64,000 nt of DNA, from contig CANHQR010000010.1 of assembly GCA_947462815.1 (NCBI GenBank), positions 1 to 64,000 on the forward strand. Direction: 5' to 3'. The notes beneath the pieces were generated by a model. The model saw only the letters and a program-made list of their open reading frames with translations, had not been told where the DNA came from and did not search any database. Position 1 is the stretch's first letter, and each line of letters opens with the position of its first letter. Shown in pieces: positions 1 through 33,694 of the stretch. The stretch is from Pseudobdellovibrionaceae bacterium. Lineage in GTDB: Bacteria > Bdellovibrionota > Bdellovibrionia > Bdellovibrionales > JAMPXM01. A program made the position numbers and the translations under genes.

Positions 1-93
1 AGATCATTCGACCTGGGTCTCACCTGACTCAGTTTCGTTCTTCGTGAGCGAGACGGGCCATTGACCCATCCAACACCCAACGAGATCCGTGAC

Positions 94-1749
94 TTAGACC
101 TGAGCTCCGTCCTGCTCCTCATCCCGCGACTTACGGCGAAGGAAAGTTGGAACATCGAGATTCTTAGGATCGAATGGTGAACGAACGATCTCGCTCGCGA
201 GACGGCGCGCCATCTCAAGAGAACTCTCTTGTTCCTCAACTTGCATCGCCAATTGTTCAGGCGGTAAGCCGCCCGTGCGTTTGGCCTGCGATTCGCGATA
301 CTGACGAACCTTCGCCAGCAGAAGATCGCGCGGCAAAGGCTTATCTCCAGAAGATGTGGGGGCTGCGGAACCATTCATGTTCACATCCAGACCGCTCTCT
401 TCGCGCGAGGGTGAAGCCGACAATTCAGGAACTGGCGACATCGCGGAAGCCGAGATGGGTGCAGAAGGCATCGCCGCAAAAGCGGTCGGCGCCGCATGGC
501 TCACAGGAGCCGCGTGCGCCTCGGGCAGCGCTGATGTCGGCGCCGTCGGCCATCCCGCATAACCAGCAGGGACTGACGGAGCCGGTTGCGGTGCGTAGGC
601 AGGCTGACCCATCGGCATCGAGTGTGTCGGTGCCGAGAAGTTCTGCGGAGTCACGGCATAACCAGGTTGTGGCGGATAGTTAGCCGGAGCCTGAGAAGGC
701 ATCACCATATGGGCCGACATTTGTGTGGAAACGCGAACCTGATGTTGAAGGGCCTGCATCTGCGCCATGTGCTCACCGGCCTGCAGAGACAAGGGATCTT
801 GACCGAAGCCCGTCGCGATGACCGTGATCTGGATTTCATCTCCCATCGACTCATCGATAACCGCACCGAAAATAACTTCAGCAGACTCATGCGCCGCCTC
901 GGTGATCAGCATGGTGGCTTCATCTACTTCGTGCATCAGCAAGTTGGCGCCCGTGATGTTGACGATGATGCCTGTGGCTCCATCAATCGAGATATTTTCC
1001 AAAAGCGGCGAGCTGATGGCCGCTGTTGCTGCTTCTACGGCGCGATTGTCGCCTTTGGCTCGGCCCGTACCCATGATCGCCATACCTTTCGAGGCCATGA
1101 CGGTACGAATGTCCGCGAAGTCGAGGTTGATGTAACCGCGGACGTTGATGAGATCCGAGATCCCTTTGACCGCGTGAAGCAAAACTTCGTCCGCACGTTT
1201 AAAGCTGTCCACTAATGTGGTGTTCGCACTGGAGATCGACAGCAACTTTTGATTGGGGATCACAATCAGCGTGTCGACGTTCTCGCGCAGCTCCTGAATA
1301 CCGTGATCGGCATTGCGCATTCGCTTCTTGCCTTCAAACAAGAAGGGTCGTGTGACGACACCGATGGTGAGCGCACCAAGTTCGCGCGCAATTTTGGCGA
1401 CGATGGGCGCTGCGCCTGTACCAGTTCCGCCGCCCATACCCGCGGTCACGAAGACCATGTCGGCGCCCTCGAGAGCTTCAACGATGTCGTTGTAAGACTC
1501 GATCGCCGCACGCTTACCGATCTCCGGATTGGCACCCGCGCCTAATCCTTTGGTCAGCTCGCTTCCCAATTGAATGCGCTTTTGCGCTTTATGAGCCGCG
1601 AGTACCTGTTTGTCGGTGTTCGCGATCACAAACTCGACGCCCTGTAAACCACCGTCGATCATCGTCGTGATGGCATTATTGCCGCCACCGCCGACGCCGA
1701 CCACTTTAATGTTGGCGCCGATATTGATGTTTTCTTCAAGTTCGAACAT
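94..1749 (-). CDS. ftsZ: Cell division protein FtsZ
   Basis: Tubulin-like GTPase that polymerises into the Z-ring at mid-cell. The GTP-binding signature GGGTGTG is at about residues 106-112, and the N-terminal GVGGGGNNA loop is at about 18-26. The core ends near residue 325 and is followed by a long Ala/Pro/Met/Gln-rich linker of roughly 180 residues. The conserved C-terminal tail (DVPTFLRRK) that binds FtsA follows. At 551 residues it is much longer than the usual 380-400, and all of the excess is linker. It is the last gene of the dcw cluster, 25 bases after ftsA, and ends in TAA. Identity is certain; only the linker is unusual. Confidence 0.98.
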
Positions 1750-1774
1750 GACCCCTCCGTTCGTACTGAACCGT

Positions 1775-3187
1775 TCAGCTCAAGGCGCCGTTGAAGAAGT
1801 CTTTCACCTTGCGAGCGACCTGATCCAAGGTCTCTCCCACAGAGAAATCTCCTTCGCGAGATGCTTGAGCGAGGCGTTGTTTTTCTTGTGTCGATAGATT
1901 CTCGATCCCGTAAATCAAAAGACCGACGCCTGTCGCGTACTCCGGCGAGCGCACCACATCCGTCAATCCGCCCATGCCCTCGGGGATTCCGCGGCGCACG
2001 GGTACTTCGCAAACAAACTCACCCATTTCCATAAGTCCTTCGAGAGAACTTCCGCCACCGGTGAGCACAAGGCCTGACCCAATCTGATCCGCTAGGCCCG
2101 AGCGGCGAATTTCCTGCCACAGTAACAGCACAGTTTCTTCAGCGCGTGGCTCAATGATTTCACAAAGATGTCGACGGAGAAGTGAGCGCGGCTTGCGCCC
2201 CCCCACACCCTCGACTTCGATGGTCTCATTTTCATCGACAAGGTCCGCGATGGCACAGCCGAACTTGCGCTTGACGATCTCGGCCGCTGACTGCGGCGTA
2301 CGCAGGCCCATCGCCACATCTTGTGTGAAGTGGGAACCGCCAACAGGCACTGTGGCCGTGTGGGCCACGGCCCCCTGAACATAGGTCACGATGTCGCACG
2401 TACCGCCGCCGATATCGACCACGCTCACGCCAAGTTTCATTTCGTCTTCGGACAAGACGGCTAGGCTCGAGGCCAACTGTTGCAAAACCATCCCGCGAAC
2501 TCGTAAGCCGGCCTTCTCACAACACTTGATGATGTTCTGCAAAGCCGTTTGCCCAGCCGTGATGATGTGCACATTCGCTTCTAATCGCACACCGCTCATG
2601 CCAATGGGATCAGAAATTCCGGCTTGCTCATCAATTTTATACTCGCGAGGCAGGACGTGGAGGACTTGTCGATCGGCGGGTACCGCGACGGCCTTGGCCG
2701 CCTCGATCACGCGAGCAATATCCTCGATTTTCACTTCTTTATTGCGGATCGCGATCATACCGCGCGAATCGAAAGACTTTACATGGGTGCCACCGACGGC
2801 GACCAAAACTTCCTCAATACGGTAGCCACTCATCAACTCGGCTTCTTCACGAGCCTTCGCAATGGCCTCGATGGTCGATTCAACATTGACGACCACACCC
2901 TGACGAATGCCGCTTGATGCAGCGCTTCCGACGCCGACAATTTCGATCTGCAAATCATTGGCCGTCAACAATGGGCCTGCACTGGGCGATGGTCGCACCA
3001 GCCCGACGACAACGCTCACTTTACTCGAGCCAATATCGAGACCCGCGAGAAGAATCTCACGGGACGCTGGGCGCTCGCGCAGCGAGCTGCGAACATTCAT
3101 GGAGCTGAGTGATGAGGTCGACGCTCCGCTGGTGGGGCGCGAAGTCGCTGTCGCATTGTGATCTAAGCCGCGCTCACTTGTCGTCAT
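1775..3187 (-). CDS. ftsA: Cell division protein FtsA
   Basis: Actin-fold ATPase that tethers FtsZ to the inner membrane and signals to the divisome. Visible motifs are the phosphate-1 loop DIGSSK (about residues 51-56), the phosphate-2 motif [10 protein letters not shown] near 240, and a C-terminal basic amphipathic helix ([11 protein letters not shown]) expected to bind membrane. The first 40 or so residues are a Ser/Thr/Arg-rich extension. The ATG is preceded by a G-rich stretch (gggggtt) that can serve as ribosome binding site. At 470 residues it is slightly longer than typical FtsA. It lies between ftsQ and ftsZ as in most dcw clusters. Confidence 0.97.
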
Positions 3188-3398
3188 CCATAACCCCCGG
3201 CCGTCGATCTCCCAAAAAAGACTCCCGGCACACTCATTCTTCAGAACCCAAGCACCGCGAATGCGAATTGGCCAAAAGGTCTGACCTCATGGGTTCGCCG
3301 GTCTTCACGGTCACCTGGCCTTGAGCTCGGAAACCGCCTGCTCAGCTGAAGCAGAAGTGGCTTCGCCCGACCTTGGGCGGAGCACCCTCGACTCAAGG

Positions 3399-26691: not shown

Positions 26692-28743
26692 ATGTTGAAG
26701 GTGGTGGTACTCTCAAATGATAATCGCGCAGCCCAGCAGCTACGGGCCTGGTTGCGCGAGCTGCCTGACGACCCCTGGGTGGATTCGTTCCCCAGTATTG
26801 AGGCCTTCGAGAAGGCTTACGAACAACCCTTACGTGAAATCACCGGTTCCAATGCCACCGAGGGAATGGATGCCAACAAAGCTCGAGAGTTTTTGGCCTC
26901 CGCCGTGCCGATTCGATTGTTGATTGTCGACTTGGATCTCATGGGCGCCAAAACACTCGAGTGGCTCAAACAGACGAAACAAAGGCTTGGCGAACTTGGA
27001 CACTCTTCAGAAAAAGTGCAAATGCGGACTCTGCTTGTGGGGTACGACGAACCGAACTCAAGCTACGAGCGCTTCCAAAGCGACCACATCGATGACCTCA
27101 TTCTAAAGCCCTTCGATCAGGCTCTGTTTCAGCAAAAGGTTGAACTGCTCTTTTCGGATAATCCCGACCTCAATCCGAGCTTTCTCTACCGAACCAAGGC
27201 AGAAGGCTTTGTCGAAATCGGCAAAGATGCCATCATCGATGAACTATCTGAATCCGCACTTTCGATTCGAAACCCTCGTCCGCTCGCGGAAGGTGTCTAC
27301 GCACTGATTCATTCGCGGGCCTTTAGTACACGCGGCTCACCAAGTGGTCGAATCATTGGTCGCGCCTACGCCTCCGTGCGACACCCTCAAATTGAGAATC
27401 AATGGCTGGTTCGGTTTTCCCTTTTTGGAATCGCGCCCGAGCAGCTCGCTGAAATTCGGCGCTTCATCATCAATCGAAAAATGCCCTCACCTAAAGGTCG
27501 CTCTCGTCCAATCGCCAAGAGGCCTCTCAGTGCATCCAAATATAAGTTACCTCCAAGACATCGTTTCGCTGTCGTCGAAATGAATCGAACATCGCTGAAG
27601 CAAGTGGCCAACACGATTGAGGAAAACTTTGAACGCGTGGAAGTGACACGCTTTCAAAACTATACGCGCTTTCTCTCAGCCTTCGCCAAACGCAGCCACG
27701 GCGCGATGGATCTCTCAAGCCTTGTCGTCGCTGCCGAAGGACTCGCTCTGCCTCGTCAGAAAACACTCCTTTACCTGAATTTAGCCACGCGAGCCATCGA
27801 GCGCTTTGATCTCGACATCGAACGCGGCAGTAGCTTTTTTGGTCGTAGTATCGGCGACTGGCTCGATCGAAGAATTGATTTTCGCGAACAAATTTTGAGC
27901 GCCGACCGTGACGACTGGGACGAGTTCATCACCTACTCAATGTCTGGGGGCGAGAGTAACGTTGGATTACGGGTGCTCCACGCGGATGGCCAGATGTCCT
28001 ACATCGAGGCCAACTGTAAACGCGCCCGCAGCCCAGGTGGTGAAGGCCACGAGTTGCAACTTGATCTGCGCGAGATCGATCATTTAGCTTGGCTCAAGCT
28101 GAACAAAACATCTCACGCGCAAAGCTCAACGGACGAACTGCGTTTTGAAGCCATCTTCATCGACGCTTCATTCGTGCGCGGCGATCAAACCGCATGGCTC
28201 GACGGTCTCCACGAAACCATGCGCCAGGCCGGCGTGATCGCGAGCGGACAACCTCTGCCGCGCATCTTTCTCATGGCCGACGAAACCTCGGAGCTCCAAC
28301 CCAACGCCTTCATGCACCGAGGCTTTTCGGATTTTTTCTTCAAGCCTATTGACCGAAAGCAGGTCGTGCAAAAGCTTGCGGCATTGGTGCCGGCGCTGCT
28401 ACGCCCAGCCGACGCCGAACCTCCTGTGTTTGTTCCGTGCGAGATTACGGTTCAACTGTGCAAAACAGCGCCGATGGAAGAACTCTCCGAGTACGGGCTC
28501 ACCGTGATGCATCCCACGCCGATTCGGCCCAAATCATTTATGCGTTTTTTCTCACCGCTTTTTTCAGGCTCGGCGGATGGCGTGATCGGGCGGTGCACCG
28601 CCAGCCTCCCCTCTCGAAAAGAGGGGGTCGGCTATCGATGTCTTTTTGTTTTCTTTGGAGCCAGCGATGAGCTCCACAAAGAGATACGCAACTGGATTCG
28701 CGATGACTACATCCATAAAAAAGAAGTTCAGGGCGGCAGCTGA
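26692..28743 (+). CDS. Receiver/PilZ multidomain regulatory protein
   Basis: A cytoplasmic 683-residue protein with two receiver-like and two PilZ-like parts, read from sequence pattern only. Residues 1-160 resemble a receiver, with Asp in LLIVDLDLMG and Lys in LILKPFD. Residues 180-275 resemble PilZ. At 289-333 a second receiver-like N-terminal half begins (HRFAVVEMN). It seems to be resumed at about 483 (FEAIFIDASF, then FFFKPIDRK near 548), and the stretch between looks PAS-like. Residues 583-683 form a second PilZ-like domain (EELSEYGLTV, YRCLFVFFG). No output enzyme or DNA-binding domain is seen. Role: probably c-di-GMP-linked signalling. The ribosome site is poor. Confidence 0.75.
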   Translation: MLKVVVLSNDNRAAQQLRAWLRELPDDPWVDSFPSIEAFEKAYEQPLREITGSNATEGMDANKAREFLASAVPIRLLIVDLDLMGAKTLEWLKQTKQRLGELGHSSEKVQMRTLLVGYDEPNSSYERFQSDHIDDLILKPFDQALFQQKVELLFSDNPDLNPSFLYRTKAEGFVEIGKDAIIDELSESALSIRNPRPLAEGVYALIHSRAFSTRGSPSGRIIGRAYASVRHPQIENQWLVRFSLFGIAPEQLAEIRRFIINRKMPSPKGRSRPIAKRPLSASKYKLPPRHRFAVVEMNRTSLKQVANTIEENFERVEVTRFQNYTRFLSAFAKRSHGAMDLSSLVVAAEGLALPRQKTLLYLNLATRAIERFDLDIERGSSFFGRSIGDWLDRRIDFREQILSADRDDWDEFITYSMSGGESNVGLRVLHADGQMSYIEANCKRARSPGGEGHELQLDLREIDHLAWLKLNKTSHAQSSTDELRFEAIFIDASFVRGDQTAWLDGLHETMRQAGVIASGQPLPRIFLMADETSELQPNAFMHRGFSDFFFKPIDRKQVVQKLAALVPALLRPADAEPPVFVPCEITVQLCKTAPMEELSEYGLTVMHPTPIRPKSFMRFFSPLFSGSADGVIGRCTASLPSRKEGVGYRCLFVFFGASDELHKEIRNWIRDDYIHKKEVQGGS

Positions 28744-28746
28744 CCC

Positions 28747-30702
28747 TTACGAAGCCTTCATTAAGCTCTTGGTCCAACGCGCGATCGAGTTGAGTGAGCT
28801 TGTATCGGCATCTTGGAAGGCCACGCCATAACGCTTCTTCTCTTCGCTCCAGACGACTTTGCCGCTGACGGTGATCTCTTCGCGACCATCGGGGCTCTTG
28901 ATGACCATCGCCACCACGCCGCCATTGTCGAGCCATGCATCGGTGTTCACTTGGGCTCCGCCCATTGAGATCGATGAAACGCTGCCGACAAGCTCTCGAT
29001 CACCCACACAGAGCTTGACCTCCGAAGCGATTTGATAGCGAGGGAATCGTCGACGGTAAGTCTCTGAATTTCGATGTCGCAAGCGCATCGCGATCAACAC
29101 CGGAGCGAGCATCAACAACAGCACACCGAAAAAGCTGAGCTGCTTCATGCCATCGCCTGAGCCCGGTCCCGAGAAATCACTGCGCATAGCTTTTACGAGA
29201 CCGCAGCCTGCCGCCTGAGCTTCAGCCGCGGGCGCTCGTTGTGCAGAAGCCTGCGAACTCGGCTGCGATGAGCTGGCGACTGCGCTCTTCGCCGCCTGCA
29301 CCGAGTTATACGCGTTCATGCGGGACTGAGTGGTTGTCTTTGATGTGAGGCTCGCAACCGGAACTGCTCCACTGAATACGAGTTCGCGGACTTGGTAAGC
29401 CGTCAGATTCGGGTTTTCGCGCAGAATCAAAGCCGAGAGTCCTGCGACGAATGGAGTGGCCATCGATGTACCCGATGATCGCCCGTAAGAATTGTACGGG
29501 TAGGTGCTGTAGATACCAGATCCGGGAGCACCGACATGAACTGTTTTGGCGCCGTAGTTCGAGAAGCTGGCGAGATTATCTATATCCGTCGTCGCCGCAA
29601 CTGAGATCAACCCGGGGATCGGATAGCTGGCGGGATAAGTGGGAGACTGATCGTTGTTATTAGCGGAGTTACCGGCAGCCGCCACCAAGACCACTTTATT
29701 GTTGTATGCGTAGTTGAGAGCTTCAACCAATGAATTGGAGTATCCGCCCCCGCCCCAAGAATTGTTAATCACCTTCGCGCCATTGTTGACCGCGTAGTAT
29801 ATGGCCTTCACCGCATCCGAAGTTGTACCCATGCCGTTGGAGTCCAAGAACTTGAGCGGCATGATCCGAATACGCGCTGGAGACATCGGGTAGGCCGAAA
29901 TATTTTGGGTCGCTCCCAAAACAATACCCGCCACATGCGTTCCATGGCCATCATCGTCCATAGGGTTGTTGCTATTGTAAGCGAAATTCCAGCCGCGAAT
30001 GTCGTCCACAAAACCATTGCCGTCGTCGTCAACACCATTGTTCGCGATTTCACGCGAATTCACCCACATAGCTCCTGAGTCCGCGAACACGGCGTGATTG
30101 TAGTCGACGCCTGTATCCACAACCGCAACGACAATCGTCGTGCCGGATGCCGACGCCGCTTCCCAAGCTTGAGGGAACTGCACCGGTGCGTTGCTTTGAG
30201 TGAAACTGGATGTAGCGACACTGCTCGATGAGTTGGCCGCGGCGCGAACCTCGGCCATGCTCATCGCTTCGCCATCTTCGGTGTCATCGGGCCGTCGAAG
30301 GATATAGTTGGGCTCCACATACTCCACGTCGGGATCCGCTTGCATCTGTTGAATCACAGCCTCGACGGGACGTGCATCATTCACCTTAAAGTGATGCATG
30401 TTGAGCCCCGCCCAAGATCCTTTATGAGCCAGACCACCTTCACTGACCGCCTTACCGAGAAAAGCTTGGGACTTGAGCGACTTTCCTGAACCCTTCAGCT
30501 TCACGATAATTTCACCAGGAACGGCTTCCGTCGTGACTTGCGCTGAAGCCAAAGAGGCAGCACTCATCGCGACACAGCCGAGAGCGGCCCACAACACGGA
30601 CTTGATCGAAGAGGTCGTTCGAGCGCCGGGCGCAGGGTGCCCCGTGTGCGAGGGCTGAGCAACTTTGACTTTTGCCTTGCTGATACGTGCAATGGCGCTC
30701 AT
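28747..30702 (-). CDS. Subtilisin-like protease with membrane segment and cytoplasmic PilZ domain
   Basis: A 651-residue exported S8 peptidase. A long n-region and hydrophobic stretch end in ASAQ near residue 55. A short inhibitor-I9-like propeptide (VPGEIIVKLKG ... VEYVEPNY) follows. The catalytic domain has Asp about 198 (VVDTGVDYNH), His about 253 (GHGTHVAG) and Ser about 413 (SGTSMATP). After an Ala/Ser/Gln-rich linker comes one membrane segment (about 520-540, FFGVLLLMLAPVLIAM). A PilZ domain follows, with RRFPR near 552 and SISMGG near 580, where the usual Asp/Asn is Ser. The expected topology is protease in the periplasm and PilZ in the cytoplasm. The ribosome site GGAGG is 5 bases before ATG. 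It is convergent with the receiver/PilZ gene, with only three bases between. Confidence 0.9.
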   Translation of the reverse strand: MSAIARISKAKVKVAQPSHTGHPAPGARTTSSIKSVLWAALGCVAMSAASLASAQVTTEAVPGEIIVKLKGSGKSLKSQAFLGKAVSEGGLAHKGSWAGLNMHHFKVNDARPVEAVIQQMQADPDVEYVEPNYILRRPDDTEDGEAMSMAEVRAAANSSSSVATSSFTQSNAPVQFPQAWEAASASGTTIVVAVVDTGVDYNHAVFADSGAMWVNSREIANNGVDDDGNGFVDDIRGWNFAYNSNNPMDDDGHGTHVAGIVLGATQNISAYPMSPARIRIMPLKFLDSNGMGTTSDAVKAIYYAVNNGAKVINNSWGGGGYSNSLVEALNYAYNNKVVLVAAAGNSANNNDQSPTYPASYPIPGLISVAATTDIDNLASFSNYGAKTVHVGAPGSGIYSTYPYNSYGRSSGTSMATPFVAGLSALILRENPNLTAYQVRELVFSGAVPVASLTSKTTTQSRMNAYNSVQAAKSAVASSSQPSSQASAQRAPAAEAQAAGCGLVKAMRSDFSGPGSGDGMKQLSFFGVLLLMLAPVLIAMRLRHRNSETYRRRFPRYQIASEVKLCVGDRELVGSVSSISMGGAQVNTDAWLDNGGVVAMVIKSPDGREEITVSGKVVWSEEKKRYGVAFQDADTSSLNSIARWTKSLMKAS

Positions 30703-31057
30703 GAAGCCTCCAAAAACGTGCGGCTTGAGTTCGAAACGAACCCCATCCCTTGCTTTATCGGCACGCCCAAGGTCCGGGCTTGAGTGAAGATTTTGACCCC
30801 ACTCCTCTTCCGCAACCGCAGCACGATAAGTCCTTGAACTGTCTCAAATTGAAACGCTCAGCTCGATTTCGGTCGATCTTGACGACAAGAGCCTGGTGCG
30901 GATTTTGGGCACTCGACAAACGCGAAAGCGGCACTTTTTTGAGTTTGTTTCATCCCGGGACAAATTGATCGGCACACCACAGGTCCAAGCTCTTGGCATT
31001 GGCATTGAACCTTTAATCAGATCGATAGAACTCACTCGCTCATCGAAGGAGAGTTGT
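30703..31057. other. Divergent intergenic region upstream of the subtilase and the lipoprotein
   Basis: These 355 bases must hold promoters for both flanking genes. A TTGACG occurs near 30877 but has no good -10 at the proper distance. No gene or strong structure is apparent. Confidence 0.4.
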
Positions 31058-31864
31058 ATGAACATGCATCACTCAGAACCACGGCCGCACCGTCCGTCGA
31101 GCTCGCGATCGCAGGTCGGCTCCATGGCGTTGGCTCTGTTCGCGACGCTGTTCCTATCTTTGAGCGTGATCGCATGTTCGAAGAGCGGCGGCGGCGATGT
31201 CGCAACGACTCCCCCCCCCGGCGGCCCAACAGGCACCGGTGTGGTCGCGACCCAATGCCAAATCGGACAGATCTACAACGCACAGTATGGTTGCTTGTAT
31301 CAACAAGGTTGTACGCAACCGAATTATGGCTGGGTTCCCGGTCAAGGTATGTGTGTGCCCGGAACGTTGATCACTGTCGACCAGGTGCACGGTGCCGGCT
31401 ACGGCATCAACTTCAAAGGCTCTTTGGGAGTGAGCAACCGCGATGCATTCGGACGCATGCTGCAGTATGCGGGGCTATGCAACCCCTACTGGGTTGGATG
31501 GAACTGGGGCGACGCCAACTGCAACACTTGGAGCAACTCGGCTTTCATGCACCTCAATATTATCTCGGGCCAACCCGCCGGTAACTTTACAATCGGTGCA
31601 GGTACGAGCAACGCCGATGCGTACAATCCATTCTATGGTGCGCTGGTTCCCGGCGCTCGCGCTCTGATCCTCAATCAACGAGCCAAGCTGTATGACTACA
31701 ACAACACACAGGGAATGTATGTCGAAGGCGTCGACTATGCCGGCACGCCGGTGAGCCTGCGCGGGATCGTCGAAGTGGGTCGTCCTGAATCGAGCTACCA
31801 ATTTGACATCACGCTTTACTATCAAGGCACAGCGATTGCGCGCGGAACACTCCGACGCTATTAA
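31058..31864 (+). CDS. Lipoprotein of unknown function
   Basis: A 268-residue lipoprotein. I start at the ATG at 31058, which has AAGGAGAG upstream. A hydrophobic signal (MALALFATLFLSLSVIAC) ends in the lipobox VIAC near residue 40, followed by a Ser/Gly/Pro-rich linker. The next part is Cys- and aromatic-rich (QCQIGQIYNAQYGCLYQQGC), as seen in several Bdellovibrio lipoproteins. The C-terminal half is beta-rich and ends in ARGTLRRY. I do not know a function. It is followed after six bases by yacG, so the two may share a transcript. Confidence 0.8.
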   Translation: MNMHHSEPRPHRPSSSRSQVGSMALALFATLFLSLSVIACSKSGGGDVATTPPPGGPTGTGVVATQCQIGQIYNAQYGCLYQQGCTQPNYGWVPGQGMCVPGTLITVDQVHGAGYGINFKGSLGVSNRDAFGRMLQYAGLCNPYWVGWNWGDANCNTWSNSAFMHLNIISGQPAGNFTIGAGTSNADAYNPFYGALVPGARALILNQRAKLYDYNNTQGMYVEGVDYAGTPVSLRGIVEVGRPESSYQFDITLYYQGTAIARGTLRRY

Positions 31865-33040: not shown

Positions 33041-33694
33041 TCAGGGATTGGTTCCGACGTAGTTGGGATCGCGACAATTCCGCAGTTGCTGGCGCAAGAG
33101 TGGACCGACGACACGAAAACGATCTCGAGCTTCGCGCGCCGAAAGTGCGAGTTTGGCTTCTAGCTCAATGAGTCCGAGATCAAAGACATCCATTTGCACG
33201 CGAACGACCTTCAAAAAATCCCCCGGCAACGGATCCTCGATTCGAAATCCCGAGATCGAAACATCCACAGTTGTCGTGACGAACTCACGTAAACCATCAA
33301 TCAACACCACGGGCTGTTGGTATTTGACGCGATCATCTCGACGCCGATCCGCGCCGTCTTTGGAGCCCGTCAATCCCGTCAAGATCGGCGAAGACTGCGA
33401 CAAATTAGAGATCTGACTCATGTCCGACTTCGAAGAAATTCGTAGACCCGATCCATGCGCTTCAGTCTCTTCCGATACCGATTCCTCAACGGTTTTCAAT
33501 GGAGCACCGCGCTTGCGAGCGCTTAAATCCAAATCCTTAGCCCGAGGCGCCGCCGGCTGCACAGTGACGGCCTCGGTCGGTGCCGGAGGCGGCAAATCGG
33601 CGCGAAGACTCTGCGGCTGATAGGCGAGAAAGGGCGTCCACTTCTTTAGAACTGAGTTACAATACTGAAAGTCGCTTCGAAATGCGGGAGGCAA
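33041..33694 (-). CDS. PilZ domain protein
   Basis: A 217-residue cytoplasmic protein with a disordered Pro/Ala/Ser-rich N-terminal half and a PilZ domain from about 115. Both c-di-GMP motifs are intact: RRRDDR at 117-122 and DVSISG at 144-149. A C-terminal basic tail follows. The frame opens with TTG at 33694 and no clear ribosome site, so the start is uncertain. It is likely a c-di-GMP receptor; the target is unknown. It is convergent with the HU gene and divergent from pfkA. Confidence 0.82.
   Translation of the reverse strand: MPPAFRSDFQYCNSVLKKWTPFLAYQPQSLRADLPPPAPTEAVTVQPAAPRAKDLDLSARKRGAPLKTVEESVSEETEAHGSGLRISSKSDMSQISNLSQSSPILTGLTGSKDGADRRRDDRVKYQQPVVLIDGLREFVTTTVDVSISGFRIEDPLPGDFLKVVRVQMDVFDLGLIELEAKLALSAREARDRFRVVGPLLRQQLRNCRDPNYVGTNP

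What the first reader, a model, noticed from the sequence alone, without database searches (positions are those of the whole stretch)
26692..28743. Doubled receiver-PilZ protein with a receiver apparently split by a PAS-like insert
The protein reads as receiver, PilZ, then a second receiver whose first half (from about residue 289) and second half (from about 483) seem separated by roughly 150 residues with a PAS-like pattern, then a second PilZ. Conserved Asp and Lys are visible in both receivers. Domain insertion inside a receiver would be new to me, and the duplication suggests two linked phospho/c-di-GMP switches without a catalytic output.
Basis: inference. Interest (0 to 1): 0.6.

Follow-up and report, generated by a model that had tools for sequence, protein, structure and literature searches.

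The report
Sensor domain nested inside a receiver
In an order of bacteria that includes predatory Bdellovibrio, a widespread regulatory protein carries a sensor-type (PAS) domain built into the middle of another signalling domain (a receiver), an arrangement we did not find described and which could show how such receivers are switched without the usual chemistry.

Summary
The 683-residue protein (26692-28743, +) is receiver, PilZ-like, receiver interrupted by a PAS-fold domain, PilZ-like. The interrupted receiver is shown three ways. The 287-residue part modelled alone (pLDDT 87.8, pTM 0.85) superposes on whole PhoP and PhoB receivers, 116-117 of 121 residues, across the insert (Z 12.1-12.3). 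Its two halves, joined, align without a break to 28 ordinary receivers of the same genome (E 6e-12) and to the first receiver (E 1e-22). Seven of 54 surveyed relatives lack the insert. The insert (core 355-473) matches PAS-B structures (Z 13.2).

The family is largely confined to one order of Bdellovibrionota (105 of 126 genomes at least 80% complete). The insert is ancient in receiver 2, lost in Bdellovibrio-like relatives, and present in receiver 1 of one lineage.

Both receivers keep Asp and Lys but lack the acidic pair and the Ser/Thr. The PilZ domains lack the c-di-GMP motif RxxxR (2 of 131 domains; 11 of 12 control PilZ domains have it). Most likely the PAS domain is a sensor that shifts a largely phosphorylation-independent receiver/PilZ scaffold. 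This is inference; no experiment exists.

The parts
26692..28743 (+). whole gene, 683 aa, stop included
26692..27171 (+). receiver 1 (residues 1-160), with a loop of about 27 residues at the site where receiver 2 carries the PAS domain
   Evidence: VIA-align Z up to 14.9 to receivers; profile E 1.9e-11 to 28 ordinary receivers of the genome
26929..26931 (+). D80, phospho-acceptor position of receiver 1
27106..27108 (+). K139, conserved Lys position of receiver 1
27187..27477 (+). PilZ-like domain 1 (residues 166-262), no RxxxR, ELSESA in place of [D/N]xSxxG
27556..27690 (+). receiver 2, first part (289-333): beta1 290-295, alpha1 299-312, beta2 316-321, alpha2 324-332
27691..28140 (+). insert (334-483) between alpha2 and beta3 of receiver 2
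27754..28110 (+). PAS-fold core of the insert (355-473)
   Evidence: Z 13.2-13.7 to Drosophila AHR PAS-B; profile hits to PAS chains; Pfam PAS_3 in 7 of 17 members
28141..28401 (+). receiver 2, second part (484-570): beta3 487-491 to alpha5 555-565
28162..28164 (+). D491, phospho-acceptor position of receiver 2
28342..28344 (+). K551, conserved Lys position of receiver 2
28426..28740 (+). PilZ-like domain 2 (579-683), ELSEYG, no N-terminal RxxxR
28666..28734 (+). C-terminal helix (659-681) with R666, W668, R670, Y673, K677 invariant in 21 of 21 aligned proteins

Best explanation
A cytoplasmic signalling scaffold made of two ancient receiver-PilZ units. In the second unit a PAS domain is built into the loop between alpha2 and beta3 of the receiver. 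SHOWN (computed): the receiver folds as one domain around the insert; the insert has a PAS fold; the two units are duplicates; the insert is old and was later lost in some relatives; the c-di-GMP motif is missing. INFERRED: the PAS domain, the fastest-evolving part, senses a small molecule or a protein partner. A change in it moves alpha2/beta3 of the receiver next to the Asp site, so the receiver is switched through the insert, with phosphorylation absent or auxiliary. The change passes to PilZ domain 2, whose strictly conserved C-terminal helix binds an unknown effector protein. Unit 1 is a regulatory or dimerising partner.
For: Composite receiver: model pTM 0.85; VIA-align spans the insert (1mvo Z 12.3, rmsd 2.9, 116 aligned, model 3..284; 2jba_B Z 12.1, rmsd 2.7, 117 aligned; 2qzj_A Z 12.1, rmsd 3.0, 117 aligned); seamless profile alignments. 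Relatives without the insert: 7 of 54 second units, nested among insert-bearing ones in the tree. PAS fold. PAS is the least conserved domain in 12 of 12 relatives compared, e.g. L002: REC1 50, PilZ1 60, REC2 47, PAS 31, PilZ2 68%, as expected of an input domain. Canonical switch residues incomplete. C-terminal helix residues invariant in 21 of 21. PMC12632262 (sections 4, 16, 20 read) reports that alpha2, the beta3-alpha3 loop and alpha3 differ in pseudo-receivers and that ligands often act there; the insert sits beside them.
Against: No experiment. D80/K139 and D491/K551 are kept in 11 of 11 same-family orthologues, which suggests that phosphorylation still matters in this family. The PAS insert shows no conserved cofactor residue: of 17 aligned rows only E411 reaches 90%, so no ligand can be named. 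Bdellovibrio-like relatives manage without it. The PilZ assignment of the window's own two domains rests on relatives: neither the whole protein nor domain 1 alone hits Pfam PilZ.
Confidence: 0.5

Rival explanations
1. Receiver 2 is still a phosphorylated receiver. The PAS domain is a docking or tuning module that chooses the partner kinase or changes the life of the phosphoryl group.
For: D and K kept in both receivers of 11 of 11 same-family orthologues. PMC12632262 section 20 notes that loss at DD, T or K need not abolish phosphorylation.
Against: Acidic pair and Ser/Thr not canonical in either receiver; over the family only 22 of 54 second and 17 of 65 first receivers keep both D and K. 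No histidine kinase found among the ten neighbouring genes scanned.
Confidence: 0.25
2. The PAS domain is only a dimerisation or spacer element tolerated in a loop; it senses nothing.
For: It diverges fastest, has no conserved pocket residue, and was lost in Bdellovibrio-like relatives. The loop is known to tolerate inserts: disordered ones in fungal receivers (PMC8510515, passages).
Against: Kept in 47 of 54 second units over several families of the order, with the same fold recognisable by profile in a distant family (E 1.3e-10), and present also at the same site in receiver 1 of one lineage.
Confidence: 0.2
3. The PilZ domains bind c-di-GMP in a non-canonical way and the protein is a c-di-GMP receptor.
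For: An RxxxR occurs in the C-terminal helix of 44 of 54 second-unit PilZ domains (R666-R670 in the window), and xSxxG-like residues remain.
Against: N-terminal RxxxR in 2 of 131 and [D/N]xSxxG in 3 of 131 family domains. A C-terminal RxxxR also occurs in 4 of 12 control PilZ domains.
Confidence: 0.07
4. There is no nested domain: 289-333 and 484-570 belong to two different domains that flank a PAS domain.
For: Pfam sees only the second part.
Against: Structure match and seamless profiles across the insert; contiguous natural relatives.
Confidence: 0.02

Closest known systems
Response-regulator receiver domain (Pfam PF00072), pseudo-receiver subset
   Same: Fold and element order of both receivers; Asp and Lys present
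   Different: Acidic pair and Ser/Thr not canonical; a PAS domain is inserted between alpha2 and beta3 of receiver 2. PMC12632262 (section 20 read) lists covalent modification, multimeric state and ligand binding as direct ways to regulate pseudo-receivers; an inserted sensor is not among them
Fungal hybrid-kinase receivers with inserts in the alpha2-beta3 loop (PMC8510515, passages read)
   Same: Same loop carries an insert
   Different: There the inserts are predicted disordered and counted from 10 residues up; here it is a folded PAS domain with about 120 core residues
PAS domains (Pfam PAS_3 PF08447; PAS-B of AHR/ARNT by structure)
   Same: Fold; weak sequence match
   Different: Usually found before or between other domains (general knowledge); here inside another domain; no known cofactor motif seen
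PilZ domain (PF07238)
   Same: Weak profile similarity, strands followed by a C-terminal helix
   Different: c-di-GMP motif lost in nearly all members
Engineered LOV/PAS insertions into host proteins (recalled, from no call)
   Same: A PAS-class domain placed in a surface loop to steer the host domain
   Different: Those are made in the laboratory; this one is natural and old

Membership tests
Receiver domain (PF00072) | (beta-alpha)5 fold | tested here: met
   Receiver 1 Z up to 14.9 (rmsd 2.5, 119 aligned); receiver 2 Z 12.1-12.3, rmsd 2.7-3.0, 116-117 aligned across the insert
Receiver domain (PF00072) | sequence similarity to ordinary receivers | tested here: met
   E 1.9e-11 and 6.1e-12 against 28 receivers of the genome; Pfam below cut-off: 18.6 of 30.2 bits
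Receiver domain (PF00072) | all five active-site residues (DD, D, T/S, K) | tested here: not met
   DD = S8 N9 and E296 M297; T/S = V116 and M528; D and K present. A one-residue shift could make D10 the metal ligand
PAS domain | PAS fold | tested here: met
   Z 13.2 to 7vna, rmsd 2.7, 112 aligned; Foldseek best E 2.9e-6, 4gs9_B
PAS domain | sequence match to a PAS profile | tested here: inconclusive
   PAS_3 in 7 of 17 members, best 6.1e-5; window itself 0.19; insert profile hits PAS chains at E 0.0053-0.34
PAS domain | bound cofactor or ligand | not testable with these tools
   no conserved pocket residue seen
PilZ domain (PF07238) | sequence match to PilZ | tested here: inconclusive
   7 of 31 members hit PF07238 at E<=1, best 2.7e-6; window domain 1 none; profile against 12 PilZ of the genome 1.9e-4 to 6.4e-4, mismatched controls 0.16-0.54; no PDB hit by sequence profile
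PilZ domain (PF07238) | beta-barrel fold | tested here: inconclusive
   strands and C-terminal helix in a fitting order; no PilZ-only model was made, and receivers and PAS fill the fold-search lists
c-di-GMP-binding PilZ | N-terminal RxxxR and [D/N]xSxxG | tested here: not met
   RxxxR 2 of 131, [D/N]xSxxG 3 of 131; controls 11 of 12 and 6 of 12

The most novel reading that the evidence does not exclude
A natural, order-wide signalling design in which a PAS sensor sits inside a receiver and replaces phosphorylation as its switch: a further direct way to control a (pseudo-)receiver beside those listed in the 2025 review. The PAS module was either ancestral to both units or copied from receiver 2 to receiver 1 in one lineage, and was deleted in Bdellovibrio-like relatives, leaving natural with/without pairs for the test.
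Probability: 0.4. Interest if true: 0.75.

Novelty: new variant of a known kind. Interest (0 to 1): 0.6.

Why it matters
How pseudo-receivers are switched is described as a mystery in a 2025 review (PMC12632262, abstract). Here nature offers receivers with and without a nested sensor at one fixed site, in close enough relatives to compare. If the PAS domain steers the receiver, it shows that the alpha2-beta3 loop is an allosteric entry point, which is useful for understanding pseudo-receivers and for building switches. It also adds a large regulatory family, for which we found no Pfam or NCBIfam model of its own, to an order that includes predatory bacteria.

Tried and rejected
Two tandem domains instead of a nested one: rejected (structure and seamless profiles).

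c-di-GMP receptor by the usual motif: rejected by motif counts. A possible substitute RxxxR in the C-terminal helix was considered; it also occurs in 4 of 12 control domains, so it is weak.

Pfam on the single window protein: nearly blind. Sequence search of the PDB with the single protein: nothing useful. NCBIfam: no family for the window protein; among the 21 relatives 7 member-to-family matches, all to response-regulator-type models, best 0.00091.

Gene neighbourhood as a clue to function: order is kept in close relatives (hpt-type phosphoribosyltransferase, glutamine amidotransferase, subtilase-PilZ) but differs in other families; no partner kinase or obvious target found. Plasmids: no match.

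Literature: ten searches found no report of a folded domain inserted in a receiver; the library is open-access papers only and I saw listings, so absence is not proof. PMC13114784, a survey of domain insertions, has no occurrence of 'receiver', 'response reg', 'CheY' or 'PAS' in its main text.

Rows dropped or relabelled: of 135 units 131 entered the tree (duplicates or short rows left out). L081 was relabelled by hand as a second unit with insert because its first PilZ domain was not detected. The first-unit insert of L019 is Ala/Pro-rich rather than PAS-like and was left uncounted in the tree; one search lists it as inserted by length. The tree is a quick one with 55 of 128 inner branches open; the second units fall in two groups, so only the single groups of first units and of single-unit proteins are well supported.

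Full report
WHAT WAS CHECKED. The gene is an intact 683-codon frame, 26692-28743 on the + strand. A whole-genome search of 59 genomes (the window's own included) found matches in 47; ten same-family orthologues of 690-714 residues (L002-L011, lengths) match at 34-48% identity. The collection scan returned 21 relatives from 36 candidate stretches, all titled Bdellovibrionota, Bdellovibrionales, Bdellovibrionaceae, Pseudobdellovibrionaceae or Bdellovibrio. In the order, 105 of 126 genomes at least 80% complete match at E <= 1e-10. In a phylum-wide set 130 of 368 match: by the listing 117 are in the same order, 2 in the class and 11 elsewhere in the phylum, these 13 only at E 7.8e-18 or weaker. 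No plasmid record matches.

STRUCTURE. The full chain was predicted from 21 sequences: mean pLDDT 84.7, pTM 0.81. Receiver 2 with its insert (286-572), from 17 sequences, gave pLDDT 87.8 and pTM 0.85. In that model beta1, alpha1, beta2 and alpha2 come first, then the insert, then beta3 to alpha5. VIA-align rows for receivers span model residues 3-286 while aligning only 116-117 residues of 121-residue receivers, so they bridge the insert: 1mvo Z 12.3, rmsd 2.9; 2jba_B Z 12.1, rmsd 2.7; 2qzj_A Z 12.1, rmsd 3.0. These are 3 of the 50 rows shown; the others are PAS or LOV domains. The insert aligns with PAS-B domains: 7vna Z 13.2, rmsd 2.7, 112 aligned; Foldseek best E 2.9e-6. Receiver 1 reaches Z 14.9 (rmsd 2.5, 119 aligned).

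SEQUENCE PROFILES WITH CONTROLS. Receiver 1 against joined receiver 2: E 1.3e-22, 128 columns. PilZ 1 against PilZ 2: E 1e-28. Inserts of receiver 1 (five-row set, one of them Ala/Pro-rich) against those of receiver 2: E 7.7e-8. Against 28 ordinary receivers of the same genome: receiver 1 E 1.9e-11, joined receiver 2 E 6.1e-12. PilZ 1 and 2 against 12 PilZ domains of the genome: 3.7e-4 and 6.4e-4; the combined set 1.9e-4. Mismatched pairs gave 0.036-0.54 and, in a further set, 0.008-0.49. The insert profile alone finds PAS chains in the PDB as its top hits (E 0.0053-0.34; one non-PAS chain at 1.4). A receiver profile made of naturally contiguous domains finds mostly response regulators, E from 0.0012, next to a few chance hits including a designed protein at 0.0011 and a hemocyanin at 0.004. 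Pfam PAS_3 hits 7 of 17 inserts, best 6.1e-5; Pfam PilZ hits 7 of 31 domains, best 2.7e-6.

EVOLUTION. Units from the loci of all calls to that point were found with four home-made profiles. Of 54 second units, 47 carry the insert by length and 7 do not (L022, L027, L030, L088, L102-L104). Of 65 first units, 7 have a long insert; in L019 it is Ala/Pro-rich, leaving 6 candidates (L015, L016, L028, L029, L072, L075), all inside one group of the tree. Eleven single-unit proteins have none. In the tree of 131 units first units form one group (support 95), single-unit proteins another (98), and the insert needs at least 7 changes. The seven insert-free second units lie among insert-bearing ones, so there the insert was most likely lost. 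Inserts of the distant family f9, which the home-made PAS profile mostly missed, still match it by profile comparison (E 1.3e-10). Some second units (for example L025, L111, L112) were counted as inserted by length. Whether the first-unit inserts are ancestral or copied is open. In this genome a paralogue (L081, 819 residues) has PAS matches before the second halves of both receivers.

ACTIVE-SITE RESIDUES. Receiver 1: S8 N9 for the acidic pair, D80, V116 for Ser/Thr, K139. Receiver 2: E296 M297, D491, M528, K551. D and K are both present in 11 of 11 orthologues L001-L011 in each unit, but in only 17 of 65 first and 22 of 54 second units overall. A shift of one residue at beta1 of receiver 1 (D10 is nearly invariant) cannot be excluded.

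c-di-GMP. RxxxR at the start of the PilZ domain: 0 of 66 first-unit (this count includes L081), 1 of 54 second-unit, 1 of 11 single-unit domains; controls 11 of 12. [D/N]xSxxG: 0, 1 and 2; controls 6 of 12.

MECHANISM. The PAS domain is the least conserved part in 12 of 12 relatives compared, as input domains often are (general knowledge). The C-terminal helix is the most strictly kept: R666, W668, R670, Y673 and K677 are invariant in 21 of 21. The simplest reading is input at the PAS domain, transmission through receiver 2, output at PilZ 2. The direction of signal, ligand and effector are inferred, not shown. PMC12632262 (abstract, passages and sections 4, 16, 20 read) says that pseudo-receiver mechanisms remain unknown in general and that alpha2, the beta3-alpha3 loop and alpha3 have gained importance in them; the insert adjoins these.

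NOVELTY. Fungal receivers have disordered inserts in the same loop (PMC8510515, passages). Ten searches of an open-access library found no folded insert in a receiver. PilZ proteins in B. bacteriovorus HD100 are counted at 15 in PMC3271064 (passages); whether this family is among them was not checked. PMC6428892 (passages) concerns another Bdellovibrio receiver protein and does not mention PilZ. Hence a new variant of a known kind.

Noticed in passing
28747-30702 (-): Convergent neighbour: subtilisin-like protease (PF00082, E 1.1e-52) with a C-terminal stretch that reads as a membrane segment and an ordinary PilZ domain with RxxxR (PF07238, E 1.1e-16). The combination is already in print for B. 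bacteriovorus (NP_969350.1, PMC2605481, passages). It neighbours this gene in the window and L031-L034, and lies one gene away in L040.
   Followed up: partly
33149-33349 (-): A further PilZ match over the Pfam cut-off (29 bits) in a 218-residue frame.
   Followed up: no
L081 (genome contig C86), about 893-3349: Paralogue of 819 residues with PAS matches in front of both receiver second halves; only its last PilZ domain was detected.
   Followed up: partly
L021, L023, L026, L083, L114-L120: Short proteins of about 220-293 residues with one receiver-PilZ unit and no insert; they form one group in the tree.
   Followed up: partly
28666-28734 (+): RxxxR in the C-terminal helix of PilZ 2, present in 44 of 54 second units; meaning unknown.
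   Followed up: partly
30896-31864 (+): Frame of 322 residues without a Pfam match at E 0.01, with relatives at the same place in L031, L032 and L034.
   Followed up: no
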